A DNA stretch of 64,000 nucleotides from Liolophura sinensis (Eukaryota > Mollusca > Polyplacophora > Chitonida > Chitonidae), in contig NC_088303.1 of the NCBI RefSeq assembly GCF_032854445.1, forward strand, positions 5,649,501-5,713,500, in the 5' to 3' direction. A program made the translations under genes and the position numbers. Of this stretch, positions 276 through 55,148 are shown piece after piece. The stretch's first letter is position 1. The number at the start of each line of letters is the position of its first letter. A model generated the notes under the pieces. The model was given only the letters and a program-made list of their open reading frames with translations, had not been told where the DNA came from and searched no databases.

Positions 276-359
276 CTTTAGGGAGTTGATCTCTTCATTT
301 TTCTCTGTTCTTGATGCTTCAAGGTCCTCCAACAGTCGTTCAAAGCTCTCCTGGGTCTC
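276..359 (-). CDS. KIF15: KIF15 exon 32
   Basis: 28 codons: [19 protein letters not shown] then KNEEINSLK, coiled coil, between acceptor ATACAAG and donor AAG|GTACAA. It is the last coding exon visible; the remaining exons lie upstream of position 1. Confidence 0.82.
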
Positions 360-3300
360 CTTGTATGTTAGCAAGGTTAAGGGTCAGCCAACATGAAAAT
401 GTGACACTTAACTTATACCTACATATTAATGTATAATGAAAGTCATGTCGGTATTGCCCTAGGAAAGTCACATAGCTATGTAGGCCTACAATGTAGTTCA
501 GTACATTTAGGAGTGTAGGATGTAAGTGTGTGTAGGTTGTACCCTTAGAATGTCATACAAGTTGAAACTTGGCATTCTAGGTGAGTTGCTTAAATTGTAT
601 CATAGAACTCTGTTAAGATCTGTGTAAAGTCATGCTCATTTAATTTTTGCACCCGTCTTCTAGTTCTTGTGTAATGGCTTTAGCATTTAATTTTGCACCC
701 GTCTTCTAGCTCTTGTGTAATTACTTCCAGCACCTATTTTTTGCACCCGTCTTCCAGTTCTTGTGTAATGGCTTTAGCATCTAATTTTTGCACCCATCTT
801 CTAGTTCTTGTGTAATGACTTCAGCATCTAATTTTTTCACCCGTCTTCTAGTTCTTGTGTAATGGCTTTAGCATCTAATTTCGCACCCATCTTCTAGTTC
901 TTGTGTAATGACTTCAGCATCTAATTTTTGAACCCGTCTTCTAGTTCTTGTGTAATGGCTTTAGCATCTAATTTTTTCACCCGTCTTCTAGTTCTTGTGT
1001 AATGACTTTAGCATCTAATTTTTGCACCCGTCTTCTAGTTCTTGTGTAATGACTTTAGCATCTAATTTTTGCACCCATCTTCTAGTTCTTGTGTAATGGC
1101 TTCAGCATCTAATTTTTGCACCCGTCTTGTAGTTCTTGTGTAATGACTTCAGCAAATAATTTTTGAACCCGTCTTCTAGTTCTTGTGTAATGGCTTCAAC
1201 ATCTAGTTTTTGAACCCGTCTTCTAGTTCTTGTGTAATGACTTCAGCATCTAATTTTTGAACCCATCTTCTAGTTCTTGTGTAATGGCTTTAGCATCTAA
1301 TTTTTGAACCCGTCTTCTAGTTCTTGTGTAATGACTTCAGCATCTAATTTTTGAACCCATCTTCTATTTTTTGTGTAATGGCTTTAGCAACTAATTTTTG
1401 AACCCGTCTTCTAGTTCTTGTGTAATGACTTTAGCATCTAATTTTTGCACCCATCTTCTAGGTCTTGTGTAATGACTTTAGCATCTAATTTTTGCACCCG
1501 TCTTCTAGTTCTTGTGAAATGGCTTCAGCATCTAATTTTTGCACCCGTCTTCTAGTTCTTGTGTAATGACTTCAGCAATTAATTTTTGAACCCGTCTTCT
1601 AGTTCTTGTGTAATGGCTTCAACATCTAGTTTTTGAACCCGTCTTCTAGTTCTCGTGTAATGACTTCAGCATCTAATTTTTGAACCCATCTTCTAGTTCT
1701 TGTGTAATGACTTCAGCATCTAATTTTTGAACCCATCTTCTATTTTTTGTGTAATGGCTTTAGCAACTAATTTTTGAACCCGTCTTCTAGTTCTTGTGTA
1801 ATGACTTTAGCATCTAATTTTTGCACCCGTCTTCTAGTTCTTGTGTAATGACTTTAGCATCTAATTTTTGCACCCGTCTTCTAGTTCTTGTGTAATGGCT
1901 TCAGCATCTAATTTTTGCACCCGTCTTCTAGTTCTTGTGTAATGACTTCAGCAATTAATTTTTGAACCCGTCTTCTAGTTCTTGTGTAATGGCTTCAACA
2001 TCTAGTTTTTGAACCCGTCTTCTAGTTCTTGTGTAATGACTTCAGCATCTAATTTTTGAACCCGTCTTCTAGTTCTTGTGTAATGGCTTTAGCATCTAAT
2101 TTTTGCACCCGTCTTCTAGTTCTTGTGTAATGACTTCAGCATCTAATTTTTGAACCCATCTTCTATTTTTTGTGTAATGGCGTTAGCAACTAATTTTTGC
2201 ACCCATCTTCTAGCTCTTGTGTAATGACTTCAACATCTAATTTTTGAACCCGTCTTCTAGTTCTTGTGTAATGGCTTTAGCATCTAATTTTTGAACCCTT
2301 CTTCTAGTTCTTGTGTAATGGCTTCAGCATCTAATTTTTGCACCCGTCTTCTAGCTCTTGTGTAATGACTTCAGCATCTAATTTTTGCACCCTTCTTCCA
2401 GCTCGCGTCATGACTTCCAGCACCTATTTTTTGCACCCGTCTTCTAGCCCTTGTGTAATGGCTTTAGCATCTAATTTTTGAACCCGTCTTCTAGTTCTTG
2501 TGTAATGACTTCAGCATCTAATTTTTTCACCCGTCTTCTAGTTCTTGTGTAATGACTTCAGCATCTAATTTTCGCACCCTTCTTCCAGCTCGTGTAATGA
2601 CTTCAGCCCCTACTTTTTGCACCCTTCTCCTACCTCTTGTGTAATGACTTCAGGATCTAATTTTTCCAGCAATCTGCTAACAGTTCTGAACTGGATTTAT
2701 GAATTGTACGTTTCTGCATTATCAGGCAATTCTGAAAAGATGAACTTTCTGAATTTACCTCAACCTATACTGCAAATCCCTGACATTTAGCCTACAACCT
2801 GTAGTTCAGGACATTTAATATGGTTCAGCAAGATTACAGCTGTATTCTGTCACACGCTTATATAATCTTTGCAACGTGAAATTACACGCATTGACACTTA
2901 TTTGTATCCAGAAATCAAGGTGGATATATCAATACAAGGGAGCAAACTTTTCATGACCTCTATTTGTTCTGTGCAAATTATTGCCTTTTTTTTGCTGATG
3001 ACATTTTAAAATAACACTTTTTTGAATGACTTTTAATTATATTTATTTACAATACTGCTGTGAACATCTGTTTCTATTAGTAATTTTTGTCCCTTCCTAC
3101 TTTTAAAGCTTCCCACCCAGAATACACAGTTCACAAACTGCACAGCGCTAGATCTGAGTCATTTATTATTCTGCTGTGCTAGTTAAGTTAGCTATCTAAT
3201 ATCAAGTTCCAACAACAGAGGCGGAGCATATCTAATTTATGCACCATTCTGTTACACATGTGCAATCTTTTCCAAAGGATATCTGGCGATCTCCTCCAGC

Positions 3301-6300
3301 TGGGTATTGATGAGTTCACAAAGATCTGTGTCGGGCTGTACAGGCTTGGAAATCTCTTCCAGTCGCTGCCTGAATTCACATCTTATCGTCTCCATTTCTT
3401 CTGTCAAGGTCAACACCTAAAATATACAGGTGAGCTTCCATTAAACAAAAGACTCTGATGTTCTCAGTACATGTACACAAAGTGGTTCAAATCATAGTAA
3501 AACCTCCATTGTTAGCAGATGTAAAGCTGTAGTGTTTTATTTTTATTTTATTTGATTGGTGTACACCATACTCAAGAATATTTCACTTAAACGACGGTGG
3601 CCAGCATTATGGTGGAAGGAAACTGTCACAGCCCTGGGGAAACCCATGACTATCTGCAGGTTGCTGGCAGAACTTCCCACATATCCAAAGTGTTTTTTGA
3701 GCACACACACAGTATGATCTACTGCAAGGAACGATGCTTTGAACCACTTTCTTAAGGGCGCTAAGGAATTGAGAATTTCCCCCCCCATAGATATTCTCTG
3801 CTACATTCTTCATTATTCCACAATCCCACTGCCAACCTGCCACACTGAAATAATATCAAAGTTAGATATAAAGGGGTTGTAGCCGAAAATTCCTCATTAT
3901 ATTCCTTTATTTCATTGATGTCTGGACTACACCACTATCTTTTGCCAGGTCCTTGACATTGTTACCCTCTGCAGTCAAATAAAATTCATCATATTTAATG
4001 CAATTTTCCAAAATCTCATAGGCACCTGGCACTTCATTTGGCTTCCAGCATAATGTGAAGTTGAATACTAGAAACTAAAACTGAGCTGAATGTCTGGCTG
4101 CTGCTGAAGTCTGACATGTTGTGGCATAGGCATAAATTGACGTGCTTTCATCTGTTGCCAATAATTCCTCTTCTGCTCTCCTGTTCTGATGTGCACCAGG
4201 AACAGCTATCCGACTCATTCTTGCAAAAGAATGCATATACAGGTAAGATCTATACTATCTGAGAGAACAACCTACCTGTGTCTTGGCTTTGCAAAGTTCT
4301 TCTGATATCTTATCTGATTCAGCCTTAAAAGAAAAAAAAAATATAGTGAAAACAAACAAATTCAGAGAGGTCATAGCCAATGCTAAATATCCAAAACTTA
4401 AACCTGGATCAAGCTGGTTTCCAAACCTCAACTGGAGTTACATACAATATGCCTGCACACAAAATTTTATGAAGAAAACATAGGGACAACACTTGAGGCA
4501 TAAAGAACACTTCGTCAAACACAGAACCTAGATATTACTCCACGTAACTGGATTTTCAGAAAATATGAGAAGAGCACACCTGAGTCTCCTCGACGATGCG
4601 CTGTCTGGTATTGAGCTCCTCCTGTAGTTTCTCATAGCTCTCCATGGCACACTCCAGCTCATCTCTCAGCATGCTTACCTGAGGACACACAGAACACAGG
4701 GTTTTCACACAGGAGATGTATGCAGACACACAACCTGGGCTGTCCTTGTACAGGTAGTTCTCTACATTGAACATTTAGTCCAATGTGGTAGATCTATCTT
4801 TTTTCTGCACAATGACAACCTGAATCCAACCAGGTTAGACTACACAGTTGTAAAACTACCACTATGTAACCAGTTTGTCCTCAGGCATGACACAGGCATG
4901 ACTGAAAAATAAACTACACCTGAATTACGATAGGTGAGAAAGATTCCCCACATTCAGAAGAAACACATTTCTTGATTGATCAATGTCTCCAATTCTCAAT
5001 GAAAACTCCTTGAGAAAAGTAAATCAACAAAACAGCGACAAAAACCCACAAGCAAACCTTGAGGTGAAACAAGTCCCAGTGCTGGAAATTAGTGTTCAAA
5101 CAATCTGTAACCTGAGATTCAAGAAACAAATCCAATGTTAAAAACAGATTCACTTAGACAGAGCTACGTGTAAATCAAACCGACATGTACCTCTACATTA
5201 TGAGCACTGACTTTCTGTTCCTTCTGCTCTGCCAGCTCATTGAGCTGAACTCTGAGGTTGTCAATCTTGACCTTCTGGTCATCAGACAACTGCTGTAATG
5301 TCATGACCTCGTGACCTTTACTCTCCACCTCAGCTTCCAATGACATAATCACTTCTTTGTCAATATTCCAGTTGTCCTTCAGCTCCTGTATCTTACCCAT
5401 CATTCCTCTCATGGCCTCCTACAACATGAGAAATCACAAAAAATACACCTTTATCAGAATACTAATTTTCCGTATTTAAAAGAAAACTCTTAAATCAGTT
5501 ATACTGGAAATTAAACACAAATGCCCAAAGCATCCTAATTTTCTGTGATGTGTTGTCAAGAAACTACAAGGCTTCAAAGACAGAAAAACATCTGTCGGCA
5601 TACTGTGAGCCTATACATGTAATTGGGAGTCTCCATGGTCTTGGGGTTAGCATGACAGCACAGTGGCCCAGGAGCGTCCCAACAAGGCACTCGCTGTGAG
5701 TTCAAGCCCAACTCATGCTGGCTTCCTCTCCGACCGTACATGGGAAAGCCTGCAGCAACCTACAGATGGTCGTGGGTTCCCCCTCTGGCTCTACCCAGTA
5801 TTCTCCTACCACAATGCTGGCTGTTGTCATATAAGTGAAACATTCTTGAGTACAGCGTAACACACCAATCAAATAAATAAATATACGTGTAATTAGATCT
5901 GTGGTCTATTAGCCAGTGGGAAGGCAGAGTCCAGAATCCTTTATATCACTGTTTTGGTTGTGCATAGAAGTTATACAGTGTCCTCTATTGAAAGCAATAC
6001 AATATTGTACACAGTGATAAGCTTGAACTTCACAAGTAGTTTGTGTGCTTAATTGCTTTTCCTGAGTGTATATCATGGCTCATGCATTTTCCAGTTCCTG
6101 GATACTTATCAGTGAAGACTGTGACTTACCGCATTGTCTAGGAGTTGTTTCTCCTGAGTGCAAATCATGGCTCATGCATTCTCCAGTTCCTGGTTACTTA
6201 CCAGTGAAGATTGTGACTTACCACATTGTCTAGGAGTTGTTTCTCCTGAGTGCAAATCATGGCTCATGCATTCTCCAGTTCCTAGATACTTATCAGTGAA

Positions 6301-9300
6301 GATTGTGACTTACCACATTGTCTAGGAGTTGTTTCTCCTGAGTGCAAATCATGGCTCATGCATTTTCCAGTTCCTGGTTACTTATCAGTGAAGATTGTGA
6401 CTTACCGCATTGCTAGGAGTTGTTTCTCCTGAGTGTAAATCATGGCTCATGCATTTTCTAGTCCCTGGATACTTATCAGTGAAGATTGTGACTTACCACA
6501 TTGTCTAGGAGTTGTTTCTCCTGAGTGTAAATCATGCCTTATGTATTTTCCAGTTCCCAGAGTCTCATCAGTGAAGATTGTAACTTACCACGTTGTCTAG
6601 GAGTTGTTTCTCCTGAGTGTAAATCATGCCTTATGTATTTTCCAGTTCCCAGAGTCTCATCAGTGAAGATTGTGACTTACCACGTTGTCTAGGAGTTGTT
6701 TCTCCTGAGTGTAAATCATGCCTTATGTATTTTCCAGTTCCCAGAGTCTCATCAGTGAAGATTGTGACTTACCATGTTGTCTAGGAGTTGTTTCTCCTGA
6801 GTGTAAATCATGCCTTATGTATTTTCCAGTTCCCAGAGTCTCATCAGTGAAGATTGTGACTTACCATGTTGTCTAGGAGTTGTTTCTCCTGAGTGTAAAT
6901 CATGCCTTATGTATTTTCCAGTTCCCAGAGTCTCATCAGTGAAGATTGTAACTTACCACGTTGTCTAGGAGTTGTTTCTCCTGAGTGTAAATCATGCCTT
7001 ATGTATTTTCCAGTTCCCAGAGTCTCATCAGTGAAGATTGTGACTTACCATGTTGTCTAGGAGTTGTTTCTCCTGAGTGTAAATCATGCCTTATGTATTT
7101 TCCAGTTCCCAGAGTCTCATCAGTGAAGATTGTGACTTACCATGTTGTCTAGGAGTTGTTTCTCCTGAGTGTAAATCATGCCTTATGTATTTCCAGTTCC
7201 CAGAGTCTCATCAGTGAAGATTGTGACTTACCATGTTGTCTAGGAGTTGTTTCTCCTGAATGTAAATCATGCCTTATGTATTTTCCAGTTCTCAGAGACT
7301 CATCAGTGAAGACTGTGACTTACCGCATTGTCTAGGAGTTGTTTCTCCTGAGTGGAAATTGTGACTCGTGTACTTTCCAGCTCCTTGCTGAGCAGTGACA
7401 AAGACTGTGACTGAGCATCAAACATGTTCTGTATATTAGACTTCTGTGCCTGGAGACTGGATATATCTTCCATCAACCTCAAAGCGACAGCCTCCTGCAA
7501 ATAGTACAATAAGCTTGTCTGAGAGGCTACTAGCATTAGAAGATGGTTGGTGACAAGATACATAATGGACAATCATCAGTGTTTTAGTTGGATTCTAACA
7601 CTGTTTTTAGCAACTTGACTTGAACTAATAATGTTGCAAGAAGCCACACAACAAGGTTGTTTATGTATCTGGTACACAAAGCTTCGCAAAATTACTATAT
7701 AAAATATAGCAATTTTTCACCCTAGATGGGATTGCATTTGCTTAAACCCCTTCACATAGCACAATTCTAATGCTCATGTTTCTATGTCATTTTTTTACAA
7801 TTAAGTTTCTGATGAAACATAAAAAACTGGCATGTTTTCTTCACAAGAGACAAACAAAACAAGTTCAAAGATGATAGATCCAAGTCGGGGATACTACTAT
7901 TTTTGTGCCTGGTACTTCGTTTTTCTGCCCTGTCCTATGTACATCATATACAGATTCTGTCTTCGTTTTTGCTTTCACTAAATCAGTCATGTGCAACCCA
8001 CTAATGACAGTTTGCACAGGACAAAAGTAGACGCTGTTGACAAGGAAGCTGAAGACTGACATTCCAATGGTACAGATCTATAAACGCGTCAAATTATAAC
8101 CAAGAATGTCACATTTCAGCTCACCTGCTCTTTTCCATCATTTTGCATCTGACTCTGAAGCTGTGTCACTTTTTCCTTCTCCACAACAAGCTTCCCATAT
8201 GTTGACTGAAAAATGAGAAAATATTATATTTTATATCTTAGTCAAGAAAATTTTCCCTTTTTTGACTTATGGTGCAAGAAAACAAAAAAAGAGCATGATG
8301 CAAAACTAATACATTTACTCTAGCACCATACAAAGCCAAACTACTGGAGTTGATTTGCAAATGTGATCTCATTGGCTGATGGCTCATGTAGCCACCCAGT
8401 TTTTATATTCATTTAATTCTTGTTTAACACCATGCTTAAGAGCCTTTCACCTACACTATGTTGGCTAGTTGCATAGATGCAGACTTTTGGCGAGTTACTG
8501 GGAAACTCTCCAATTTGGGGCATTTGTCATATTGGTGAAAGAAACGTTATCTTCAGCAATCTTCATGCATGGCCACACACGAGAACACTCTCAACTTTTT
8601 CTCACCATCATCCCCTCCAACACCCACCACCCCCCGACCAGGGTAAACATTAAAATTATTTGTCCAAGAATAGGAGTGAATCCACATCTTGTGTGTAACA
8701 GCCGAGTGAAAGACAAGTACCTTAACAACTCAGCTGTACTTAACTTATAAAGTGAGGCAGTTTACACATTCAGCCATGTTTATTGCAGTCACTGGTGTTA
8801 ACCTGTGACAAAATACCTCCAGTTCCGTCTGTACAGTTTTCAACTCCTTCCTCTCACTGTGAAGCAGACCTTCCAAGTCCTGGATCTCACTCTCGTGGAA
8901 ACTGATTGTGGTCTGGGCATTATCAAACGCTTCCTACAATACAGCCAATATGGGTAGCATGTAGAAGGCACAGTCATACCACCTTTAAAATGGATATTGC
9001 AGATTCTGACAGTTTTATTAATCTTAGAAAGATTTTTTGATGTTTCTCTGGAAAGTAGGATGATATCCTTGTTGAAAAGTGTAAGTTTCAGCACCAAAAG
9101 AAATATTTTCTGACATTTATTTACCTCTAAACATGTTCTCCTTTTGACTAAATTTTAGCTCACCTCATACATGTAAGCATCAATTTCACCATAAATTGCA
9201 CCGAAAAGGAATGCCGTGTCACTTTGTGACAATTTTCTATTCCTTCCTGTGTATTATTTTCTTTTTTTCAATTTCTTTCTTTTTTTTCCTCAGATGGGAA

Positions 9301-12300
9301 GGCCTGGCTAGATTTCACCGAAAAACATTCAGATTCATTTCATTATAATGATACTGTACATATATATAGCTGAGAACAACTCCTATTTTGGGTATCACCA
9401 TAGATTATTTGCATGGTAAAACATAACATGGGAGGAAGCTTGAGGAAGGACCTTTCAAATTCATGGGTTTCAGTTTCAGTAACATGTACAAATCCATGCT
9501 TTGTTAATCTGATAGGAATTAAGAATCCATCTGGGCCCTATACAGAATGGACAAATGTACTGTTTGTTAACAGACATACCTGTAACATTGTCTTCTCTTC
9601 TGTCAGTTTGACATTCTCCTGTTGAAGTTTGGATAACTCCATCTCCACCTGAAGTACCTGTTAATCCACAAACACATCGCCATCAGTCACTTGACCTATA
9701 CAGGTAACTCATATGCAGGCTATACCATGCCATCTTTAATAGCCATCTTTAAAGGATACATGAAAAGGTGTTGAAAAATGTATGACTGTAAGAATAATGT
9801 GCCAAAATTCCCACATACAGGAATCCCATCTACATACAAGAACAAACTTGGCATCTCATTACATTTCGCTAATCTTACTTTTGTTTCCAAAACGGACATG
9901 TCTTTGTCTCTGGACTCAATGTTTTCTTTACTCTTGGACTTCAGCTCGGCCAGCTCTTTGTCTACAGAGCGCAACATCACACCCAGATCTACAGACTCTT
10001 CCTTGGAAACTGAAACACAAGAATTCCACAGCTTACAGAACATCTCAACTTCTCTAAGGGTATTTTAAAGCCATAAAACAAAAGTACACTGTATAGCTGA
10101 GCAATTCAGAACTGTTATCCATCATCTGGAAGACCTGGTTTCAGGTAAATTTGTATTTACATGAATGTGTATGTCACTTAGACTTTAATGATGTTAAAAT
10201 GTTAATGACATATAACTGATAGGAAGAAGCCATAAATAGGGATTTACACTCAAGTAAAGTCATGTACTTGTCCACCACAAGTCTGCGAAAGTTGATTTTA
10301 CTGCCTACTTCCTTAGATTATCACAGTATTACCTCATACAGACAAAGACATACACACTTGCTACAGCCTGTTCATATTTAGTTGCAGGCCTTTATAAGAT
10401 AAAAATCACAAAAAAAGTGTTTTGCATGCACACATGAAAACAATATTAACATATTTACGTCATTTACAAATTATAAATTTGTAAATTAGGCTACACTTTT
10501 CTTTAACATATCTCTGCATATCCAACTGATGGGAATATGTATACATATACTGTGTTTTCTTGCGGCAGGACAAACCCATGTTGCCATAGTGCTGCCGCCA
10601 CTGAAGTATCATGCCGAAGACACAAGACATGACACCTCATCCTGTCATATTATACTGACACTAGGCCAACCAGTCATGTTTCCACAATCAATCTTCTTAG
10701 TGCTGAGTGCAGAATGACTGTCAAAGAACATCATCTAAGGATACCATAACGTTTAAGGGCGCTTTTGGCTCCTTATTATCACCAAAAATAGGTAAGGCAA
10801 GGCCAACATGGTGATATTCTAATGTGCTAATTTTGGCATCAAGGAGAGTTACCTCCACAAGCTGTCAGCAAAATGTGTATGAATCTGGACATACTGGTGA
10901 ATATGATAAGGTGACTTCTTTGGAGAGTTAAAAGAGTAACCTACTTCTGGCCAGTTCGTTGGCTTTCTTCAGCTCTTCTGCAATAGTCTCTGATCGGTTT
11001 ACCAGCTCTTCTTCTTTTCTTGCCCATTCACTTCGCTCCGTTGACAGAATCTTAAGCAAAAAAAAAAAACAGACAGAAATAAATAAACATTTATATGCTG
11101 CTAATAACTGGCCACAACACTTGTATTGACAGCTGTCTCTCCATCTATGAAACTTTTATCGTTTGTGTCATTTAGGCTATACTATTTTACCCAGAAACAG
11201 TGCAAATGTGCATCTTTTAATTCTGATCCCAATCAATATTACTTACAAACTTCATGGTTTATACCAGCAGGCACAGACCACGTGAGTTTGTTTATCCTTA
11301 TGTATAAATTTGTGGGACATGCAGTTGAGTCATGCAACTGGCTTATATTTGACCAATGTTACTTGCTCAGGGACAATATGGGTCAAACCACTTTCTCCAT
11401 AGGGGTGTATGAAATGAGCACAAATGCTTACAATGGGCCCTTCTGACTCAAGACCTCAATTCTTGACACAAAACGAAAAGAAAAGCCTCTGAAGTCATCA
11501 TCTTTTCCATGAACAGGTGAAATACCTCATTCAGCTGCTCGTTTTCATTCTCCAGTTTACTCAGGGTCTGCTGGAGTTTGATCATTTCTCCTTCATGTTC
11601 CTCCACACGCTGTACAAGACTGTTGTTGTTGTCCTGTGGGGAAATAAAAAAAAAAAACCAAAAAAAAATTTAGTTCAAAAACAAGTTAATGCAGCCTGAC
11701 AGCATGTTTACTTGTATAGATCAGACTGACCTGAAGAGATTTCACCTCATCAGTGAGATCGCTGGCCATCTGTTCAGCCATCTCTTTGGCAGTATGTCCT
11801 TTCACATGACAACACAGAACGACCATATGTATTTGTATTTCTGAGCAGACTGACCTGTAGATTTAATCTCATCAGTGAGAGCACTGGCCATTTGTTCAGC
11901 CATCTCTTTGGCAGCATGTCCTTTCACATGACAACACAGAACGACCATATGTACTCATATTTCTGAGCAGACTGACCTGTAGATTTAATCTCATCAGTGA
12001 GAGCAATGGCCATTTGTTCAGCCATCTCTCTGGCAGCATGTCCTCTCATATGACAACACAGAACGACCATGTGTACTTGTATTTCTGAGCAGACTGACCT
12101 GTAGAGATTTGATCTCATCAGTGAGAGCACTGGCCATCTGTTCCGCCATCTCAGCCGGCTGACTCTCTGGTAGAATATCCTCCCCAGGGTCCAGGATGAA
12201 AGAGCCATTAAATCCAGGGCTTTCCCGTGACAACTTGGCAAGGACATTGCGATTCCTCAAGCTGTAACAAGTCTTTGTGGGCGTGGTGATTGTCTACAAC

Positions 12301-15300
12301 CACACAGACACAATTAGTACATATACACTTGTACATTGTTCTGGATCATTCAACCTTTATTTTTTTTTATGAGTATCACAAAGGTTTTCCTTAACAGTCT
12401 TGTTCTGGAGAATCTTACCTTTATGTTTGTACATGAATGTTACAACGGCTTTCCTTATCAATCTTGTTCTGGAGAATCTTACCTTTATGTTTGTACATGA
12501 ATGTCACAAAGGCTTTCCTTATCAATCTTGTTCTGGAGAATCTTACCTTTATGTTTGTACATGAATGTCACAAAGGCTTTCCTTATCAATCTTGTTCTGG
12601 AGAATCTTACCTTTATGTTTGTACATGAATGTCACAAAGGCTTTCCTTATCAATCTTGTTCTGGAGAATCTTACCTTTATGTTTGTACATGAATGTCACA
12701 AAGGCTTTCCTTATCAATCTTGTTCTGGAGAATCTTACCTTTATGTTTGTACATGAATGTTACAAAGGCTTTCCTTATCAATCTTGTTCTGGAGAATCTT
12801 ACCTTTATGTTTGTACATGAATGTCACAACGGCTTTCCTTATCAATCTTGTTCTGGAAAATCTTACCTTTATTGTCTGTACATGAATGTCACAAAGGCTT
12901 TCCTTATCAATCTTGTTCTGGAGAATCTTACCTTTATGTTTGTACATGAATGTCACAAAGGCTTTCCTTATCAATCTTGTTCTGGAGAATCTTACCTTTA
13001 TGTTTGTACATGAATGTCACAACGGCTTTCCTTATCAATCTTGTTCTGGAGAATCTTACCTTTATGTTTGTACATGAATGTCACAACGGCTTTCCTTATC
13101 AATCTTGTTCTGGAAAATCTTACCTTTATTGTCTGTACATGAATGTCACAAAGGCTTTCCTTATCAATCTTGTTCTGGAGAATCTTACCTTTATGTTTGT
13201 ACATGAATGTCACAAAGGCTTTCCTTATCAATCTTGTTCTGGAGAATCTTACCTTTATGTTTGTACATGAATGTCACAAAGGCTTTTCACATCAGTCTTG
13301 TTCTGGAGAATCTTACCTTTATGTTTGTACATGAATGTCACAACGGCTTTCCTTATCAATCTTGTTCTGGAGAATCTTACCTTTATGTTTGTACATGAAT
13401 GTCACAAAGGCTTTCCTTATCAATCTTGTTCTGGAGAATCTTACCTTTATGTTTGTACATGAATGTCACAACGGCTTTCCTTATCAATCTTGTTCTGGAG
13501 AATCTTACCTTTATGTTTGTACATGAATGTCACAAAGGCTTTCCTTATCAATCTTGTTCTGGAGAATCTTACCTTTATGTTTGTACATGAATGTCACAAA
13601 GGCTTTCCTTATCAATCTTGTTCTGGAGAATCTTACCTTTATGTTTGTACATGAATGTCACAAAGGCTTTCCTTATCAATCTTGTTCTGGAGAATCTTAC
13701 CTTTATGTTTGTACATGAATGTCACAAAGGCTTTCCTTATCAATCTTGTTCTGGAGAATCTTACCTTTATGTTTGTACATGAATGTCACAAAGGCTTTCC
13801 TTATCAATCTTGTTCTGGAGAATCTTACCTTTATGTTTGTACATGAATGTCACAACGGCTTTCCTTATCAATCTTGTTCTGGAAAATCTTACCTTTATGT
13901 TTGTACATGAATGTCACAAAGGCTTTCCTTATCAATCTTGTTCTGGAGAATCTTACCTTTATGTTTGTACATGAATGTCACAACGGCTTTCCTTATCAAT
14001 CTTGTTCTGGAGAATCTTACCTTTATGTTTGTACATGAATGTCACAAAGGCTTTCCTTATCAATCTTGTTCTGGAGAATCTTACCTTTATGTTTGTACAT
14101 GAATGTCACAACGGCTTTTCTTATCAATCTTGTTCTGGAGAATCTTACCTTTATGTTTGTACATGAATGTCACAACGGCTTTCCTTATCAATCTTGTTCT
14201 GGAAAATCTTACCTTTATTGTCTGTACATGAATGTCACAAAGGCTTTCCTTATCAATCTTGTTCTGGAGAATCTTACCTTTATGTCTGTACATGAATGTC
14301 ACAACGGCTTTCCTTATCAATCTTGTTCTGGAGAATCTTACCTTTATGTTTGTACATGAATGTCACAAAGGCTTTCCTTATCAATCTTGTTCTGGAGAAT
14401 CTTACCTTTATGTTTGTACATGAATGTCACAACGGCTTTCCTTATCAATCTTGTTCTGGAAAATCTTACCTTTATGTTTGTACATGAATGTCACAAAGGC
14501 TTTCCTTATCAATCTTGTTCTGGAGAATCTTACCTTTATGTTTGTACATGAATGTCACAACGGCTTTCCTTATCAATCTTGTTCTGGAGAATCTTACCTT
14601 TATGTTTGTACATGAATGTCACAAAGGCTTTCCTTATCAATCTTGTTCTGGAGAATCTTACCTTTATGTTTGTACATGAATGTTACAACGGCTTTCCTTA
14701 TCAATCTTGTTCTGGAGAATCTTACCTTTATGTTTGTACATGAATGTCACAAAGGCTTTCCTTATCAATCTTGTTCTGGAGAATCTTACCTTTATGTTTG
14801 TACATGAATGTCACAAAGGCTTTCCTTATCAATCTTGTTCTGGAAAATCTTACCTTTATGTTTGTACATGAATGTCACAAAGGCTTTCCTTATCAATCTT
14901 GTTCTGGAAAATCTTACCTTTATTGTCTGTACATGAATATCACTCATACTCTCTCTGTCTATCTTGTTCTGGAGTCGTCTGGCCTGCATGACTTTCTCGA
15001 GCTCAGACACCGCTTTCTTGTAAGATGTCAATTCTGCTGCAGCTTTCACCAGAGCCTGCTGGGAAGCATTTTCCTGTGTCTGCAGTTTTTCCTTCAGCTG
15101 GGAACATGGATTTATAAGTCATACATCAGAAACTGGAAAATTACTCACTGTTTTGTAGCGAAGAATACTGCCACTAACACATTCCTGTAAGTCATCTTCT
15201 CCAATTAAGAAAATGCTGTCAAAATCAATCCACAATTCATTTATTTATTTTATTAATGCTCTACTCAAGCATATTTCACTTATATGAAGGCGGTGAGACT

Positions 15301-18300
15301 TATGGCTGATGGAAACCGAAGTGCCAGGTTGTGATGCACCTTGTGATGTACTGATATATACACCATACCAGTGGTATTCAACAATCGGCTCACAATTCAG
15401 TGAATGTGAAAAATGGCCACAAAAGCGTGGCAATCCACAAATTCTCTGCCAAAGGGCAGCACTGAACCCACACTTTGTGTATCCTAATGATTGCAATACA
15501 ACCATCTCAACCACATGGCCATAACCCACTCCCAAACTAAGAAAGGAATACAGTAAAACAAAACATCTAACTTATCTCAAGTGTTTCACATGATCTTACG
15601 TTTGTGATTTCGTCCTGTAGCTTCTCCACCTGAGACTTGTACCTCTCCACTGTGGCCAGGGACACATTGTTCTCCCCACTCTGAGGGGTACTGAGTATCA
15701 AGGGAGCGTCCTTATCGCCATCACCTACAGCAGCAAATACATTGTGGAAAATCTCCACAGTATTTCTGTGCACTATTAGACGTGCTGAATGAGGCTGAGC
15801 TCACATAAAGTCGTAAAGCTACCATTTAGCTCTGGTAAATATATCTAGATCCTCACAAAGTCCTGACTAATTACAATTAATCATCTTTCATAAAGGGTTC
15901 CAGTGTTCTGTACAACCTTTTCCATCAACTTTTCATGGTTTTCTAACCTGAAATAGATTTCTTTTTAAACAGCCCTTATACACTTTGGAATTTTTGTTAT
16001 CTGAAATCCTTGTAATGCTGTCAAATAAAAGTCAAATACTGCCAAAAATTTTACACATAACCCTGGGTTCCTGATCAACAGCTGACTTTACGTCCCAAAT
16101 GTCCTTTCATTTACTGTTTCAGGATGTTAAAGAAAGACAGCTCCATGCTATACAGGTGTGACATGTGGCTTACCTCCCCTGTGAACAGCCAGCAGTTCCC
16201 TGAACACTTTCTCCAGTTCCTCAGCCCGCTGAGGGTCCACCTGCTGACAGGTACCCTCCTGACCCCTCAGCTTCCTCAATTCTGCCTTTAGTCTCTGGTT
16301 CTCCATAGCATATTGCTTCAACTCCGGGTTGTGCTCCAGCTGATCACGTAAAATCTTCACTTCTTCAAGCAAATCTGCCTGAAATATAATGTCACCAGAA
16401 TGGATTTCTACCTCTGCACTGGAGGTTGTGTTCTTTGTCAGCCTTTGTCTGTCTGTGAGCAACTTTACAGACAAAATCACGGAGGGATCTTGATGGAATT
16501 TTGTGCATGGTTGGTTTCAGGACAATGACCAATACAGTTTGGTGATGACCCCCATGGGGATACACATCCAAGAATACGTTAAACGATTCTTCACCATTGA
16601 CAGACAGAACAGAATTTCATGAGGTTTGACACCAAAGTGAACATTTTTTTTACTTTCAATGGCAGCTAAATTTGAGCTTTTTTGTCTCTAGCCAATAAAC
16701 TGAGCTGAACTATTGCTACGTGTGTTCTGACTGGTACATGTAACTTAACTGCTTTCATCAATTTTTCAAAGCTGAATTAGAAATCAATAGCTTAAAACTA
16801 ATATTTATAACATGTATATGTGTCTGACAGGATAGAACAGACATGACAAAGATATCATGCCATTTTCACATCTCTCCAGGCTTCCATACTCACTGTTCTA
16901 TCATTGGTTATGTCCCCTGCTGAGCCTGATTTGGCTGCTTTTTCCAGTTTTGCTATAAAACTTTCTCTGAACTTGACAATCATCTTGGTAGACTGAAGAA
17001 ACTTCTCCTTCTTCTTGCACAGATCATCAAGCTTAGCCAGTTGTTCCCGAATTTCCTGCCAGAATGAAAACAAGTTCATATGTGATATTTGCTTCAAAAA
17101 AACATGATCACAGGCAAACATGAACATGAACAGAACTACCGATAAATGCATACCTGTATTTTAAAACATCGAAAACATTTGCAGCTGGTATTTATTTCTC
17201 TGTTTGGTATTTTACTCAAGAATACACTGTTAGTACAATACCTTCATTATGGTATGGAAAACAAAGGAAAATGAAACAATGGATATAAAAACAGTAAACA
17301 AACTAAGAATAAAAACAGTAAACTAAGAATTTTTTCTCAATGACACCATTTCTTTCCTACATACCATTTTTTCTTGCTCAGTTTTTTCTCGGAAATACAT
17401 AGCATGGATGAAGTTTCGTTTCCACGTCAAATTCAGCTCAGCTGATTGGGCGTTTGGCTCTGGTTTGGCAGTGTAAATGTCTGAAATGTCAGTTAACATT
17501 CACCTGTAAGTGTTAATGTGACAAAATTGAAAAGAAGACTGATGCAAATTTGACACACATCTAGGAATGAAGTAATAAGACAGAATGAAAAGAAGTTTCA
17601 TCCAAGAAAAAAATGATCACAAAATACAACAAGGCCTACCATCTCACATTTGATGTTTTCTGGGAGTAAAATGCATACATTCAGCTTGAATTTGAGCAGA
17701 CACAGACCATAATTTGACTGCCTTACCTCAGCCTGTAGTTGACTCACACTACCCTGACTGTCCTCAGTGTGTGAGAAGACTTACCTGAGGGGTTAGTAGG
17801 GATGGCTCCACTGTAACACTGAGCCAGTAACTCCTTCAGACGCCTCACCTCAGCCTGTAGTTGACTCACACTACCCTGACTGTCCTCAGTGTGTGATAAG
17901 ACTTACCTGAGGGGATGGTAGGGACGGCTCCACTGTAACACTGCGCCAGTAACTCCTTCAGATGCCTCACCTCAGCCTGTAGTTGACTCACACTACCATG
18001 ACTGTCCTCAGTGTGTGATAAGACTTACCTGAGGGGTTAGTAGGGACGGCTCCACTGTAACACTGAGCCAGTAACTCCTTCAGATGCCTCACCTCAGCCT
18101 GTAATTGACTCACATAACCCTGACTGTCCTCAGTGTGTGATAAGACTTACCTGAGGGGTTAGTAGGGATGGCTCCACTGTGACACTGAGCCAGTAACTCC
18201 TTCAGACGCCTCACCTCAGCCTGTAGGTGACTCACACTACCCTGACTGTCCTCAGTGTGTGAAAAGACTTACCTGAGGGGTTAGTAGGGACGGCTCCACT

Positions 18301-21300
18301 GTGACACTGAGCCAGTAACTCCTTCAGACGCCTCACCTCAGCCTGTAGGTGACTCACACTACCATGACTGTCCTCAGTGTGTGAGAAGACTTACCTGAGG
18401 GGTTAGTAGGGAAGGCTCCACTGTGACACTGAGCCAGTAACTCCTTCAGACGCCTCACCTCAGCCTGTAGGTGACTCACACTACCCTGACTGTCCTCAGT
18501 GTGTGAGAAGACTTACCTGAGGGGTTAGTAGGGACGGCTCCACTGTGACACTGAGCCAGTAACTCCTTCAGACGCCTCACCTCAGCCTGTAGGTGACACA
18601 CACTACCCTGACTGTCCTCAGTTTGTGAGAAGACTTACCTGAGGGGTTAGTAGGGACAGCTCCACTGTGACACTGAGCCAGTAACTCCTTCAGACGCCTC
18701 ACCTCAGCCTGTAGGTGACTCACACTACCATGACTGTCCTCAGTGTGTGAGAAAACTTACCTGAGGGGTTAATAGGGACGGCTCCACTGTGACACTGAGC
18801 CAGTAACTCCTTCAGACGCCTCACCTCAGCCTGTAGTTGACTCACACTACCCTGACTGTCCTCAGTGTGTGATAAGACTTACCTGAGGGGCTAGTAGGGA
18901 CGGCTCCACTGTGACACTGAGCCAGTAACTCCTTCAGACGCCTCACCTCAGCCTGTAGGTGACTCACACTACCCTGACTGTCCTCAGTGTGTGAGAAGAC
19001 TTACCTGAGGGGTTAGTAGGGACTGCTCCACTGTGACACTGAGCCAGTAACTCCTTCAGACGCCTCACCTCAGCCTGTAGGTGACTCACACTACCCTGAC
19101 TATCTTCATTTACCACAGCCTAATAATGATAAAAGTATAAAACAAAAGTCATGAAATAAGATGTCTCAGAGGTAAGGTTTTAACAGTATAATGCATTACA
19201 ATGAGGTAGAATTTTGTTCAATTATTAATGGTACTTTTGCATTTACAGCTAGTTAAATGTAAATACCAATAAAAACCCCTAAAGAAACAGTATCACAAAA
19301 AACACGTACATCAGAAGGTTATGAATAAGAAACATGTGAATAATAAGTGATTAGTTTTTATGTCTATACATGACGCAAATTTACTATTTTTCTTTTTAAC
19401 TTTTTGCACAGGCATTAAGTAGCATTACCTTATTTTTAATCATCTTTGCCCTCTTGGCAAACTGCAATGTAGACAATGTTTCGCCAAAGCACCTGCAGAA
19501 AAGAAAAACAGGACACCAAATTTAACAGGCTTGTGACCTGGAAACCGTGTTCTACATCACTATTTATGATTCTAATTAGTGGAGGTCTAATTAGTGGAGG
19601 TAAGGGGTTGAGGGAGGGGAGATGGAGGCATTTTAGTAGATAGTGTGAAGAATCTTCCCAGATCTAAAAGTTGCAATGATTTAGAAAAACATCTCAGAGG
19701 TCGAAGGAGGGAACAATTTCAAATGTTTAATTAAGTTGGACATGCTGTACAGTGAACAAATTTTCCACCAAAGTCACATTTACTGATTTGGAGAAGAGTC
19801 ATTCTCGAGGAGAGCAGTCTGGAGTATTGATCGCAATTAAGTTTATCATGTGACCACCAGACCACAGAACATGTACAACGCAGATTTCTGCCAGCAAACC
19901 ATGGTATTTCAGCTCCATTTACAGTCGGTTAGACATACCCTTATACACATGCGACTTACTTAGAAGAGGGGTGGGCACAGGCTATTAGCTGAGTTTTAGC
20001 ATTTCCCCCTAAGGAATCCTGAAAGATGGAAAAAATAAAAAAATGCATATACAGAAATAGACGTACACAGGTATGAGCAGAGATGAAAGCAGACAATTTG
20101 ATGAATTTAGCTTGGTGAATTTTCCAGGACATTCCAGGAACATGATTTAGTCAAAAAAAAAAAAAGACACACACATATAGAAATCCAGATAAACACTAAA
20201 AATGTTTATCTCCTAATGACTGAAACTACTGTACATGAACCAAAATTTTTGCAGAAAATATTTCCCAGTTCACTGTGTCTATCAGTTTCCAATATCTGAC
20301 ATTTAACAGCGTACCCAAGAAGTTTTCCCATGTCAAAGCAGCTTTGTGGGTGGACGAAACCGAAATGTCCAAGTAATTAGCAACCAAATGATAAAATCCT
20401 GACTTATACCTCAACCCAAGCCCATTCAGTCATGTGATTAGCCTGCCACTGGTTGGCTAGGAAGAAAACAATGCATGAGGAACAATTCATGTTCAAGAAA
20501 ACTTCTTATGCACTTGTGACCTCCATGGTATTTAACCAGTAACCTCTTCTTGGGGCTTACAGTAACATTCAGCTGTAATTTCACCAGAATAATTGTTCAA
20601 TTACACTAAAATAGAGTCAACTTCAAGACAAGTTCTAAAAACAGGGAGCAAAATGTTATGATAACTTTCACTGAACTCAAGGAAGAAAATCTGGATGCTT
20701 TTGACTAGTATAGACTTGCGAATAGAGATCCAAAATGTTGCTCCATTATTAGAGGTTGACAAACCCTGAGAAGGAAGGTGAGCTTGGACTCTCTGTAGGG
20801 CACGTGTTTACTCTTATTACTGGTGGAAGTGACGAGGGCCATGATGACATTGCCCAGAGTGGACAAAGACCGGTTAATGCTGCCTGCCTCCTGTAACACA
20901 CACACAAACAATATATTTATACTGCAGTGAAAAAAGTACTGAAAACCACACCAGCAGCCAAGGTCATCATTAAAACTATGTTTGCTGGGCCTAACTCCTA
21001 CTTTAAAGCTTTCAACAGCATTTTGATCATTTCTGTTTTTCTATTTTTGTTACAGAGCCAGCTTAGCCTCAACAAAGAATTTCTCAATGATGGCCCAATA
21101 TATTAGTACAATACAATCTTCCCCATAGTAATTCTGCAAGATATATTACATACTAGTACTCAAGAAAGCACACTTTCTCACAGCTTCATACTGTATATCA
21201 ATATTTCATCACTTGTCTTAGAAATACTATTGTGGTATTATAACACAGACAATGTCACGTACAAATACATGTATGTGTCGCTGACAAACCATGAACACAA

Positions 21301-24300
21301 AAGCAGTTACTAAGTATAACAGATACCAAACCTTAAGTCTTATTCCCACAGTATTGGTATCTTTCTGTCTCTCGCTGCCAGCCAGATCAACAAGGTTCAA
21401 GTGAGAATAGCGGACATTCTGTAAGGCACCCTTCTTCTCCTGGAAATACATTCAGCAGATGTTACAACCCTTACAGAGGCTACTGAGTTAATTACTAACA
21501 TTCACCTGGTATCACCCTTCCAGCATCCCTATCACCAGTTGATTTATTTATCAATCTGTTTACCTAAACCTATGGGATAGCAAACTGGAGCATTGCACCA
21601 CACTGGTTAGAGCCAATGATCTTTGGATTTGGCTATTAAAAGATATGACCAGTTTTGGCCCTAGATGGAAACATGTCATCCTGATGTACATACAAAAACT
21701 TTTCAAATCCTAGGTGTTTGCATATTTTGAAGCCAAGTCAGGCATGCCAGAAATCAAATTCAATGCTCGATTCAAACCATTTCCTCACAATATCTTTATG
21801 TTACATATGAAGAATTAGTTCAATAGAAAACCACTGAAAGGATAAAACCTGAAAAGGTATAAGCAACTCTCCTTATGACATTCAACACAATGAAATATCA
21901 GACGCCTGGCACAAAATACAAGGGAACAAACATGCAGATCTGTTAATCTGCTCTCTACATGTACACCGCAATATTCAACTTACATCTGATATAGACACGG
22001 CTCTATAGGCACAAATAACTCCATATCCCAGTGACTTGTGCACACTACACTGACTAACTATATGGTGTTACAGAGGCCTCCTCATAGCTGAGACACATCA
22101 TCTGTGAGCAGCCACAAGGGATTATGACAAAGGTGACTTCAAAATCAGATCTTCAGGACCACTTGTTCACATTATGGTCGTATAAAGCCATTATAAAGCA
22201 AGTCAAATGATTCGATATAAAGCTCCAGCCATCTATAAAGTTCATTTACAATGATGTATACTGCAGTACAAGTAAGTATTGCCCGTGAAGTCTGTTACAA
22301 GAATTTTACCTTAGATTCTATCTGCAGTGTGAACACAGCATGACTCCTGGAGCTCTCTCTGTTCATGGATGTAGAGGCCACGCGGCGGTTTAGCCAGCCC
22401 GACCGTAAAACCTGCAAGCGACAAACAGGTAAAATTTAGAAACAGCAACTCCTGGATTGTGAACATAATCTGAATGATTAATTTATAAGTCTTTACTGTT
22501 AAACTAAATTCAAGCTATCCAGATAACGCACATCAGACAGTTGTCTGAGGCCAGAACATGCGAGTCATACCTGATGAGCCAGACCACACAATATTCTCAC
22601 CTGACAGGCCAGAACACACAAGGTTTTTACCTGATAGGCCTCCAGTGCTGAGGTGACCACCTGCTCTGTCAGTCCACTCACATACACTCCCTTCTTGATG
22701 CTTTCCCTCAGATGCAGACAAGGTGATGTTGTGTCCAGCAGGTCAAATATCTGTTCATTGTAGATCTCCAGAAAGGAGCACTTGCACAGGAATTCTTTTT
22801 TCTCTCCATGCTGCAATAAATCCCAGAAATGTAAGTCAGAAAATTAGCTGGTTCATAGTGCTGTACAGCTAAAACTGGCTGATATGTTTGTTTGATATAA
22901 TAAAAGAATGAATTATTAAAACATAAGCTGTCATCAATTTAAATTGTAGAACACTAAACCTATTTTGAAGTGTTTGTTAAAATTAACTATATTTCGCACA
23001 CATAGCAGTACCTACTGTATACCACCAATTTTCTCTTAACACTTTGCTTTTAACCTTTCATCAGTTGTAAACAAAAAGTGAAGGGTGTTCTTTTTTTTTT
23101 TTGAACATATTTTTGTCTGCACACTACCATTTACGATCTTCCACATCAAGATGTCTACATCAGCAACATGAGAAATTTTTCACAGCTGGCAAAAAACACA
23201 ACAGATATTAAAATGAATAAGATATTTAAGAATATATTTAAAGGATTGCTTCTTACCATTTCAATTTCCCTATTAATCAGGTTAAACAGAAATTCAAAAC
23301 TTCTTGGTATGATACCCCTTAACTCGTGATGGAAATTATCCACATCATCTGATGGACCTGAATAACAGAACAGAACAACACTGTAAATTAGTGAATAAAA
23401 CAACTGTAAGATTTAAATGAGTTTTCATTAAAGTCTTTATTTCTAGAAAACCTAAATTCAAAAAGTATTATTCTCCATGAGAAAAGCACATCTAACAACT
23501 AGACAAGAATGGTAAATAGGGACAGTCCTTAGATGTCAGGGAATATATGTTGAGTTGATAGTTTTAGTAAGTCAGACAGTACTCTGGAACACGTATCAGT
23601 ACACGTGTGTGAACCAGTTACACATAGGCAAACATGTACCATATGGTCATTTATTACTATCATACAACAGTGTACACCTTCACAGTAGTCCAGCATTAAG
23701 CTCACGCCTCCTATTTTTATGTATATTTTTCAAACTTTTCTTCTCAAAACTATTCTTGAGTTATGGTGTCCAGTCGTTTTGTTGTCACAAAGATTCATAT
23801 TAAATGTATGAAATTCCCTAAATTTTGTGTTACTGCTGAGGTTTAAAGTGCTTTCTAGATTACCCGCATGGGTTTGCTTGTCCAGCAACTGAGAAATCCT
23901 AGTACTGAGCACTGTTCATAAGTATCTTGTTTACATTTCAGACACTGTGTAGAATACATTTACAAACGCATAACTTACCCAACATTGTGAAGGTTTTGCC
24001 AGAGCCTGTTTGGCCACTGTGAATAGAGCAAGTGTCAGATATTAACAAAGGACAGAAATATACTCAGTAAGATGCAGGCAAAGAAATGACATGGGCATGA
24101 AATGAAACATCATCTGCAAATTTCACTAACATGTAGATTAGATGTACTCTATGTGACAAATGACAGCATGGTGATTTTCCCACAATGTTAGACTTATTCT
24201 GATGAGTGATCAACAATGCTGGGTAGTTATTAACACAGATAACGTACTCAAAAATATTGATTTTTCAATTTTTTACAAGTAGGTTTTATGAGCGGAGAAA

Positions 24301-32506: not shown

Positions 32507-33589
32507 ACAAAATCAAGACAATATGCTCACATATATTAAGATTGCCTAGATGGTTATTTAAAAGAAATTTAAGGGAGAAACCTTTACTATGACAAGAGTA
32601 ATTCATGCTGTTCATCAACGGATAACTCACGTTGGAAAATTAGGTGTTGTTTTTATTATTTACTCATACAGAAAAGATACAGCGTCGTCCGATACATGAA
32701 CTTTATGCTTGTGCCGTCTCTTGAGCGCTCAAGGAATTGTCTTCTTGTTTTTTTTCTTTAATTCTCTGACGTCTAGTTTCTATTCACAGTCTGGATTTCT
32801 GAAGTAACCTAACGTTTCAGTCCGGTTCTGGTCACAACCTACCATGTAGTAAAAGCATTATGGAAAACTTGTGAAATTGATCAGTTGAAAGAAAAATATG
32901 CTTGAGACAACGGTACAAAAGGTATTAGAAGAGCAAAACTGACTTTCGGTTGCTTGGCTTATATAATGTACAGCTTACGATGAAGGGAAATCAGACTGCC
33001 AGGGGTAAATCGCAGACCTTAGGCAAATTATACGGACAAACTTTGCAAGTATTAATTCATTCCAAATGACCAGGGGCCACTTGCAAAATGGACTCTTAAT
33101 CCAAAGCTGATTTCTAAATCGCTAAAATCTTAAGTCAAAAACTGAATGATGGGCAGTGTCATACTGGAAATATTTCAGCCATTTTGTGGCAGCCAGCACA
33201 CATCTTCATCAGCCAAGCGATATAGATGTGATGCTCTATTCAGTCATACCTTGGCTCGAGAAGAAGACCTGAGCACATATTCATATACGAGTGCTGCATT
33301 AGCAAGCTCATACATCCCTAGTTCTCTACTTCGTAGTAAACAGTTAATTTTGTATTCATAAAGCCATGCTAAGCACCTTTCCAGAAAGTTGGCAACTAAG
33401 CATTTTAGGAAGTAACTAAGCTGGCATACTGTGTTCCAAACTTTTATGGAGCCTGTTGTATCACCGTTCTGTATCAGTACTATTACAGTGGTGGGGTCAT
33501 CAGCCACCTGCCACATGTGAATAGCCACTGTTTCCATGGGTATACTCCACGGACAGCAGCACTTTCCATCATATCCCAAACGTAACTCA

Positions 33590-55091: not shown

Positions 55092-55148
<57 letters not shown>

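What the first reader, a model, noticed from the sequence alone, without database searches (positions are those of the whole stretch)
646..22640. Six intronic tandem arrays in one gene all start at a 5' splice site and copy the exon end with its donor
In KIF15, arrays follow exons 7, 13, 18, 19, 26 and 31. Each array lies immediately downstream of its source exon, and its unit is the exon's 3' end joined to the intron start (periods 30, 122, 64, 122, 92, 47 bp). None begins at an acceptor. The sequences, periods and source exons differ, so these are independent expansions with the same polarity. Random minisatellite birth would not place six of six on donors. This suggests a duplication process tied to exon-intron junctions, or selection for junction-spanning arrays in this gene.
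Basis: seen in the sequence. Interest (0 to 1): 0.92.

Follow-up and report, generated by a model that had tools for sequence, protein, structure and literature searches.

The report
Chiton minisatellites born at exon ends
In a chiton's KIF15 gene, short DNA repeats copy the ends of exons with their splicing signals over and over inside the introns; this resembles a repeat type described in amphioxus, it also occurs at exon starts in other genes of this genome, and it leaves the splicing machinery with many near-identical sites of which usually only one keeps the protein readable.

Summary
KIF15 (minus strand; 31-exon model, 1,189 codons, no stops) has six arrays, each starting at an exon end. 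Five copy the donor in every recognised unit (exon 7: 3 of 3; 13: 11 of 11; 18: 41 of 41; 19: 4 of 4; 26: 14 of 14). The exon 31 array does not (1 of 43 keeps GT), and exon 31 is a weak prediction. The genome's statistics match the chiton Liolophura sinensis. Donor-only polarity is not general: in 30 other kinesin/myosin stretches, 4 of 85 donor and 4 of 85 acceptor junctions recur at least twice nearby, and 30-33 of 41 in-span arrays straddle no tested junction. Exon-boundary minisatellites are known in amphioxus as 'mirages'. Best reading: locus-born minisatellites straddling splice junctions, tolerated because splicing uses the exon-adjacent site, so extra copies are intronic. Any later donor after exons 13, 18, 19 or 26 gives a stop (1 of 11, 41, 4 and 14 stays open). 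Junction arrays may be moderately over-represented (8-11 of 41 against 4.2 expected). New are the phylum, a first frequency estimate, and KIF15 as an extreme, post hoc cluster.

The parts
22569..22640 (-). 30-bp array (2.4 copies) at the donor of KIF15 exon 7 (exon 22810-22631): three in-frame tandem donors CAG|GTAAAA, CAG|GTGAGA, CAG|GTATGA
   Evidence: TRF; donor walk (3 of 3 GT, all three open in frame)
17720..19108 (-). 122-bp array (11 units) = about 102 bp of exon 13 plus about 20 bp of intron with donor CAG|GTAAGT (exon 19119-19005)
   Evidence: TRF (11 of 11 GT; only the first open in frame)
12353..14943 (-). 64-bp array (41 units) = about 57 bp of exon 18 plus the first intron bases with donor AAG|GTAAGA (exon 15097-14918); array ends 59 bp before the next acceptor
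   Evidence: TRF (41 of 41 GT; only the first open); matches only its own locus
11722..12152 (-). 122-bp array (4 units) = about 54 bp of exon 19 plus about 68 bp of intron with donor CAG|GTCAGT (exon 12293-12099)
   Evidence: TRF (4 of 4 GT; only the first open)
6053..7384 (-). 92-bp array (14 units) = about 61-76 bp of exon 26 plus intron start with donor G|GTAAGT (exon 7494-7324)
   Evidence: TRF (14 of 14 GT; only the first open); matches only its own locus
637..2665 (-). 47-bp array (43 units) downstream of predicted exon 31 (2690-2634); bulk units lack the donor GT
   Evidence: TRF (1 of 43 GT); exon weakly supported but joins in frame to exon 32
283..28891 (-). KIF15 (kinesin-12) gene, exons 1-32 as far as modelled

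Best explanation
The arrays are splice-junction minisatellites of the kind called 'mirages' in amphioxus. A short segment straddling an exon-intron junction is tandemly duplicated; slippage or unequal exchange then expands and homogenises the copies on the intron side. This is tolerated because the spliceosome uses the site next to the unique part of the exon (first donor, or last acceptor), so every extra copy is spliced out, whereas the same duplication inside an exon is removed by selection. KIF15's all-donor set is an extreme local run of a genome-wide process that hits both junction types. Shown: anatomy, no match elsewhere for the two arrays tested, stops or frame breaks in copies, open frame only with the first donor for four arrays, acceptor arrays elsewhere. 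Inferred: birth by tandem duplication, actual splice-site use (no RNA data), neutrality.
For: Units equal exon end plus intron start, and in KIF15 copies lie only on the intron side. In exons 13, 18 and 26 the exon copy differs from the array consensus mainly in the exon part (3 of 102, 12 of 56, 22 of 76 columns) and hardly in the intron part (0 of 20, 0 of 8, 1 of 16); exon 19 shows no such contrast (5 of 50 and 5 of 72). Neighbouring units are 96-97% identical in the exon 13, 18 and 26 arrays. With donor k, only k=1 leaves an open frame through the next two exons for exons 13 (1 of 11), 18 (1 of 41), 19 (1 of 4) and 26 (1 of 14). Other loci: donor arrays keep GT in L012 (24 of 27 copies), L021 (5 of 5), L029 (40 of 42); acceptor arrays keep AG in L002 (27 of 30), L004 (27 of 33), L005 (8 of 11), L022 (47 of 50); in 6 of these 7 no copy gives a stop-free in-frame extension. 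Two arrays tested match only this locus. Amphioxus mirages share the structure, occur at both boundaries, and were reported not to interfere with regular splicing (PMC3087553, passages).
Against: No transcript evidence. KIF15's 6 of 6 is out of line with the other genes (Fisher 3e-4 against 8 of 41), which random birth explains only through post hoc choice. Junction arrays elsewhere are also above the random-birth expectation (8-11 against 4.2), hinting at some junction or exon bias in birth. L001 (0 of 3 copies) and the exon 31 array do not keep the donor. L004 copies allow 7 in-frame, stop-free acceptors. Exon 7 copies are all readable. My gene finder was told where arrays lie, which may draw boundaries into them; the HMM match itself reaches into the array in L005, L012, L022 and L029 only.
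Confidence: 0.62

Rival explanations
1. Minisatellite birth itself is biased toward exon-intron junctions of both kinds (for instance because breaks or copying errors concentrate there), so junction arrays are more than what selection leaves over.
For: KIF15 6 of 6 (P 5e-5 for any junction) and other genes 8-11 of 41 against 4.2 expected after collapsing arrays. Array units (GC 0.41) lie between introns (0.37) and exons (0.475).
Against: The strict count in other genes is only marginal (8, P=0.055). As separate arrays the donor word is no denser than one control word, although its raw matches are more (808 against 643). GC preference alone could draw births toward exons.
Confidence: 0.24
2. 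A duplication process tied specifically to 5' splice sites.
For: Six of six KIF15 arrays on donors, P=5e-7 under random birth in the collapsed gene.
Against: Acceptor arrays are as frequent as donor arrays in 30 other stretches (4 of 85 each; four acceptor arrays keep AG in most copies). The polarity of KIF15 does not differ significantly from the others (Fisher 0.085). No excess of donor-word arrays by density.
Confidence: 0.05
3. Donor arrays are selected, for example as U1-binding decoys or as a reserve of splice sites.
For: Donor GT intact in every recognised unit of five arrays, counting the exon's own copy.
Against: Units of the long arrays are 96-97% alike anyway, and donor columns are not clearly more invariant (exon 13: 0 of 8 donor columns variable, 17 of 122 overall; exon 26: 1 of 8 and 23 of 92; exon 18: 3 of 8 and 20 of 64). 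The exon 31 array lacks the donor in 42 of 43 units. Acceptor arrays are equally frequent elsewhere.
Confidence: 0.03
4. The exon 26 array is translated as tandem 24-nt micro-exons.
For: An unmasked gene finder chained 12 in-frame 24-nt exons with acceptors such as ACACTCAG and GTAAGT donors.
Against: Acceptor scores are 0.7-1.3 bits; the CAG is ordinary coding sequence in exon 26 itself; the gene finder was tuned on this gene.
Confidence: 0.03
5. Assembly artefact.
For: Arrays are hard to assemble; HiFi coverage was only 14x (PMC11068029, passages).
Against: Mean HiFi read 8,347 bp exceeds the longest KIF15 array (2.6 kb); units are not all identical and end units are degenerate; similar structures occur in other stretches of the genome.
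Confidence: 0.03

Closest known systems
Mirages: minisatellite-like tandem duplications of exon-intron boundaries in amphioxus Adh3, TnC, globin and PGBD5 genes (PMC3087553 and PMC3902484, passages read; the 2002 source paper is not held)
   Same: Repeat unit joins exon end or start to intron; 10 to about 160 bp; both 5' and 3' boundaries; many but not all units keep AG/GT; units homogenised while boundary copies are excluded; copies reported not to disturb splicing
   Different: A mollusc, not a cephalochordate; six in one gene, all at donors; up to 41 donor copies; length instability and normal splicing were shown in amphioxus but are not testable here
Intron gain by tandem genomic duplication (AGGT / proto-splice-site model; search listing, and discussion in PMC3087553)
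   Same: Tandem duplication copies a splice signal
   Different: Here the array lies inside an intron whose acceptor is 59-634 bp beyond the array (five introns); no new intron bounded by two copies
Introner elements (recalled, not read)
   Same: Repeated sequence carrying splice signals
   Different: Not dispersed: the two arrays tested match only their own locus
Earthworm metallothionein genes with intronic minisatellites and fourth-exon duplications absent from the transcript (PMC12783039, passages)
   Same: A lophotrochozoan gene with intronic minisatellites and unspliced-in exon copies
   Different: The passages do not say that a repeat unit spans an exon-intron junction; whether it does was not checked

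Membership tests
Mirages (exon-intron-boundary minisatellites) | Tandem repeats whose unit spans an exon-intron boundary | tested here: met
   5 of 6 KIF15 arrays cleanly, exon 31 array without the donor
Mirages (exon-intron-boundary minisatellites) | Both 5' and 3' boundaries can be duplicated | tested here: met
   In the genome: 4 of 85 donors and 4 of 85 acceptors; in KIF15 only donors (0 of 30 acceptors)
Mirages (exon-intron-boundary minisatellites) | Concerted evolution inside the array, boundary copy excluded | tested here: met
   Neighbour units 96-97% identical in the exon 13, 18 and 26 arrays; the exon copy is 91-97%, 63-84% and 72-78% identical to the units. In exon 13 the contrast is slight; the exon 19 array is too short to tell
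Mirages (exon-intron-boundary minisatellites) | Does not disturb regular splicing | tested here: inconclusive
   Only frame arguments: the first donor alone is open for exons 13, 18, 19, 26; no RNA data
Mirages (exon-intron-boundary minisatellites) | Length polymorphism, somatic instability | not testable with these tools
   One assembly, no reads
Intron gain by tandem duplication | Array bounded on both sides by exon, intron equals duplicated segment | tested here: not met
   59-634 bp of non-array intron before each acceptor (five introns)
Introner / mobile intron element | Copies dispersed at unrelated loci | tested here: not met
   18 of 18 and 7 of 7 matches are in KIF15; two of six arrays tested; the tool's counts are lower bounds
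Exon duplication / mutually exclusive exons | Each copy has its own acceptor and donor and a readable frame | tested here: not met
   Exon 13 units hold about 102 of 115 exon bases but stop short of the acceptor; array consensus of exons 18 and 26 has stops in the exon's frame, those of 18 and 19 change length; but see the micro-exon rival for exon 26

The most novel reading that the evidence does not exclude
Splice-junction minisatellites are a major, genome-wide structural class in chitons, present at several percent of all splice junctions (thousands of arrays if the sample is representative) and born preferentially at junctions. They lengthen introns with arrays of functional-looking, nearly identical splice sites, a large natural experiment on how the spliceosome picks one among up to about 40 equal sites.
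Probability: 0.35. Interest if true: 0.72.

Novelty: new member of a known kind. Interest (0 to 1): 0.5.

Why it matters
In the papers found here, boundary-spanning minisatellites were reported gene by gene and only in amphioxus. Finding them at roughly 1 in 20 sampled donors and 1 in 20 sampled acceptors of a mollusc suggests that in minisatellite-rich genomes splice junctions are regularly copied. The arrays give natural series of near-identical competing donors (or acceptors) in one transcript, which makes the question of how the exon-adjacent site is chosen directly testable. They also show how introns can grow from exonic sequence, and they can mislead gene prediction.

Tried and rejected
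Donor-only mechanism: not supported by the 30-stretch sample. Selection on donor motifs: no clear sign. Mobile or introner origin: rejected for the two arrays tested. Intron gain by duplication: arrays do not reach the acceptor.

Limits. The word scan uses one donor word and one control word; the tool lists only the first places of 808 and of 643 matches (raw matches thus favour the donor word), and I counted separate arrays by eye. My first gene models had wrong or missing exons (among them exon 14, the exon 30 end and a spurious 57-bp exon after exon 27); one search failed for that reason, and one search is the corrected model. One search used exon 14 start and exon 30 end one base off. The 696-residue protein still held a few residues of a wrong exon 14. 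The exon 31 'stop' came from an exon 32 start one base off; one search shows it open. One search reads exon 13 in a wrong frame, so its stops there mean nothing. The exon and intron parts of units were set by me; for exon 26 the first 15 of the 76 exon columns lie outside the aligned part and hold 12 of the 22 differences.

Sampling. The stretches were picked from HMM hits before I had seen their repeats, partly favouring kinesin genes whose hits spread over long spans; they are a part of all hits. Left out of the 85 exons: seven predicted exons with HMM support (two in L021, one each in L014, L017, L025, L026, L030), and hits cut by region ends in L002 and L019. Most HMM hits with internal stops, and one without (L010), were not used. 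One exon dropped by a region end (L002, right end) lies in a 63-bp array with a donor-like site, and L001 has a 51-bp array with GGAGGTGAGTAT on the gene strand without an exon in view; both would add donors if real. L021 exon 1 acceptor has one extra copy, probably a duplicated myosin exon, and was not counted. L020 (71 bp) and L023 (32 bp) are likely donors and L027 a likely acceptor, hence 8 strict and up to 11. The 41 arrays are 45 in-span rows, merged into families by hand. That script stopped on a saving error before its shuffled control, which was therefore not run; I did not repeat it.
Full report
WHAT WAS CHECKED. The window is G000:C9:5649501-5713500. G000 has 632 contigs; C1 is 96,433,062 and C9 is 37,343,639 bases. 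These are the scaffold number, longest scaffold and N50 published for the chiton Liolophura japonica (PMC11068029, passages), since corrected to Liolophura sinensis (PMC12441733, whole text).

KIF15. The gene lies on the minus strand. Its motor region matches solved KIF15 structures at E = 1.4e-160, far ahead of other kinesins (1.6e-86 for the next). A model of 31 exons from 28,891 to 2,634 reads 1,189 codons without a stop, and exon 31 joins in frame to an exon 32 near 359-283. The gene finder was my own, tuned on this gene; of the model, the motor part has homology support.

THE SIX ARRAYS. TRF gives exactly six arrays of period 30 or more in 1-29 kb, and each overlaps the donor of exon 7, 13, 18, 19, 26 or 31. 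No acceptor window recurs (0 of 30). The exon part of the unit is about 102, 57, 54 and 61 bp for exons 13, 18, 19 and 26. Donor GT is kept in 3 of 3, 11 of 11, 41 of 41, 4 of 4 and 14 of 14 units that the walk recognised (exons 7, 13, 18, 19, 26; the exon's own copy included; the last exon 18 unit is degenerate), but in only 1 of 43 units of the exon 31 array. So the phrase 'with its donor' holds for five of six, and exon 31 itself is weakly supported (coding score 1.6 bits).

INSIDE THE ARRAYS. Neighbouring units are 96-97% identical in the exon 13, 18 and 26 arrays and 81% in the four-unit exon 19 array. In three arrays the exon copy differs from the array consensus mostly in the exon part (exon 13: 3 of 102 exon and 0 of 20 intron columns; exon 18: 12 of 56 and 0 of 8; exon 26: 22 of 76 and 1 of 16, although 12 of those 22 lie at the outer edge, beyond the aligned part). 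Exon 19 shows no contrast (5 of 50 and 5 of 72). The pattern fits a coding copy held by selection next to freely evolving, homogenised copies, but the intron parts are short. The array consensus has stops in the exon's frame for exons 18 and 26 and length changes for 18 and 19. Donor columns are not clearly more invariant than others.

SPLICING CONSEQUENCE. If the k-th donor were used, only the first leaves an open frame through the next two exons in exons 13 (1 of 11), 18 (1 of 41), 19 (1 of 4) and 26 (1 of 14); in exon 7 all three 30-bp-spaced donors are open. So a working protein requires the exon-adjacent donor among up to 41 near-identical ones. This is a frame argument; no RNA was available. 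An unmasked gene finder also saw 12 in-frame 24-nt micro-exons in the exon 26 array, with weak acceptors; I think this is chance, but only RNA can tell.

IS IT GENERAL? I fetched 30 stretches (274,500 bases; 26 kinesin and 4 myosin regions chosen from HMM hits before seeing their repeats, partly favouring genes with widely spread hits). They hold 94 arrays by the thresholds used, covering 49.7 kb, so these stretches are rich in minisatellites. At 85 exons with HMM support, a 40-base window over the junction recurs at least twice nearby for 4 of 85 donors and 4 of 85 acceptors; in KIF15 it does for 4 of 31 donors by this strict measure (5 with one or more copies) and 0 of 30 acceptors. Every extra copy of a donor junction lies downstream; copies of acceptor junctions lie upstream except one in L004. 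Acceptor arrays keep AG in most copies: L002 27 of 30, L004 27 of 33, L005 8 of 11, L022 47 of 50. Donor arrays keep GT in L012 24 of 27, L021 5 of 5 and L029 40 of 42, but in 0 of 3 in L001. In six of the seven with kept signals no copy would give a stop-free in-frame extension; in L004 seven would. The HMM match itself reaches into the array in L005, L012, L022 and L029; the other boundaries rest on my gene finder.

STATISTICS. Of 41 in-span arrays (45 rows merged by hand), 8 strictly and up to 11 straddle a tested junction; random birth in the array-collapsed genes predicts 4.2 (P = 0.055 for 8, 0.0076 for 10, 0.0023 for 11; without collapsing, 3.2). KIF15, with 6 of 6, stands out from them (Fisher 2.8e-4 against 8 of 41), but its polarity (6 donors, 0 acceptors) does not differ significantly from 4 and 4 (0.085). 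KIF15 was noticed because of the pattern, so these numbers overstate the surprise. A genome-wide word scan gives 808 matches for the donor word and 643 for the reversed word, but about equal densities of separate arrays in the places listed, with the limits told under Tried and rejected.

ORIGIN. The exon 18 and exon 26 arrays match only their own locus (18 of 18 and 7 of 7 matches), so they do not look like dispersed elements; the other four were not searched. They stop 59-634 bp before the next acceptor in the five introns measured, so they are not introns newly made from two copies of a junction. Two further arrays in the window, in the neighbouring PAR6-like gene (46,868-47,097 and 51,192-52,436), show no junction in the flanking sequence that I read by eye.

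WHAT IS KNOWN. [quoted passage not shown] They occur at 5' and 3' boundaries, vary in length between haplotypes, and were reported not to interfere with regular splicing; they were proposed as a source of new introns (PMC3087553, passages; PMC3902484, passage). The 2002 source paper is not held. My searches (listings, with passages read in four of the papers) gave no other clear report of junction-spanning arrays. An abalone intronic minisatellite of 27 bp is described without reference to a junction in the passages read (PMC6905558), and earthworm metallothionein genes have intronic minisatellites and fourth-exon duplications absent from the transcript (PMC12783039, passages), which could be related and were not checked. 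The library holds only open-licence papers, so absence there is weak evidence.

VERDICT. Most likely these are mirage-type minisatellites, in a new phylum and at a measurable frequency, tolerated because splicing picks the exon-adjacent site. Whether junctions are also favoured at birth is open and testable.

Noticed in passing
window 24441-24825 and 27975-28225: Two SINE-like elements in KIF15 introns with tRNA-like promoter stretches on the minus strand (read by eye; ARAGORN calls no tRNA).
   Followed up: no
window 31446-32024 (+): Open frame of a DUF218-domain gene (PF02698, 4.4e-14), upstream of and divergent from KIF15.
   Followed up: partly
window 33244-34056 (-): Open frames that look like a decayed Harbinger-type transposase by eye; no Pfam match for the two pieces tried.
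   Followed up: partly
window 41735-60239 (-): PAR6-like gene (PDZ exon; PB1 exon; the name is recalled) with minisatellites at 44.5-44.8, 46.9-47.1 and 51.2-52.4 kb; no junction seen by eye beside the last two.
   Followed up: partly
L005:7444-8200: Kinesin acceptor array: 64-bp unit joins the intron end with AG to an EAMSINKSLS-coding exon start (translated by eye); a clean 3' counterpart of the KIF15 arrays.
   Followed up: yes
L012:7088-9105: Kinesin donor array in which an array copy (8709-8831) itself scores as a kinesin motor match in the HMM search, a hazard for automatic annotation.
   Followed up: partly
window 22571-22633: KIF15 exon 7 has three in-frame donors 30 bp apart; use of the later ones would add 10 or 20 residues inside the motor domain.
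   Followed up: partly
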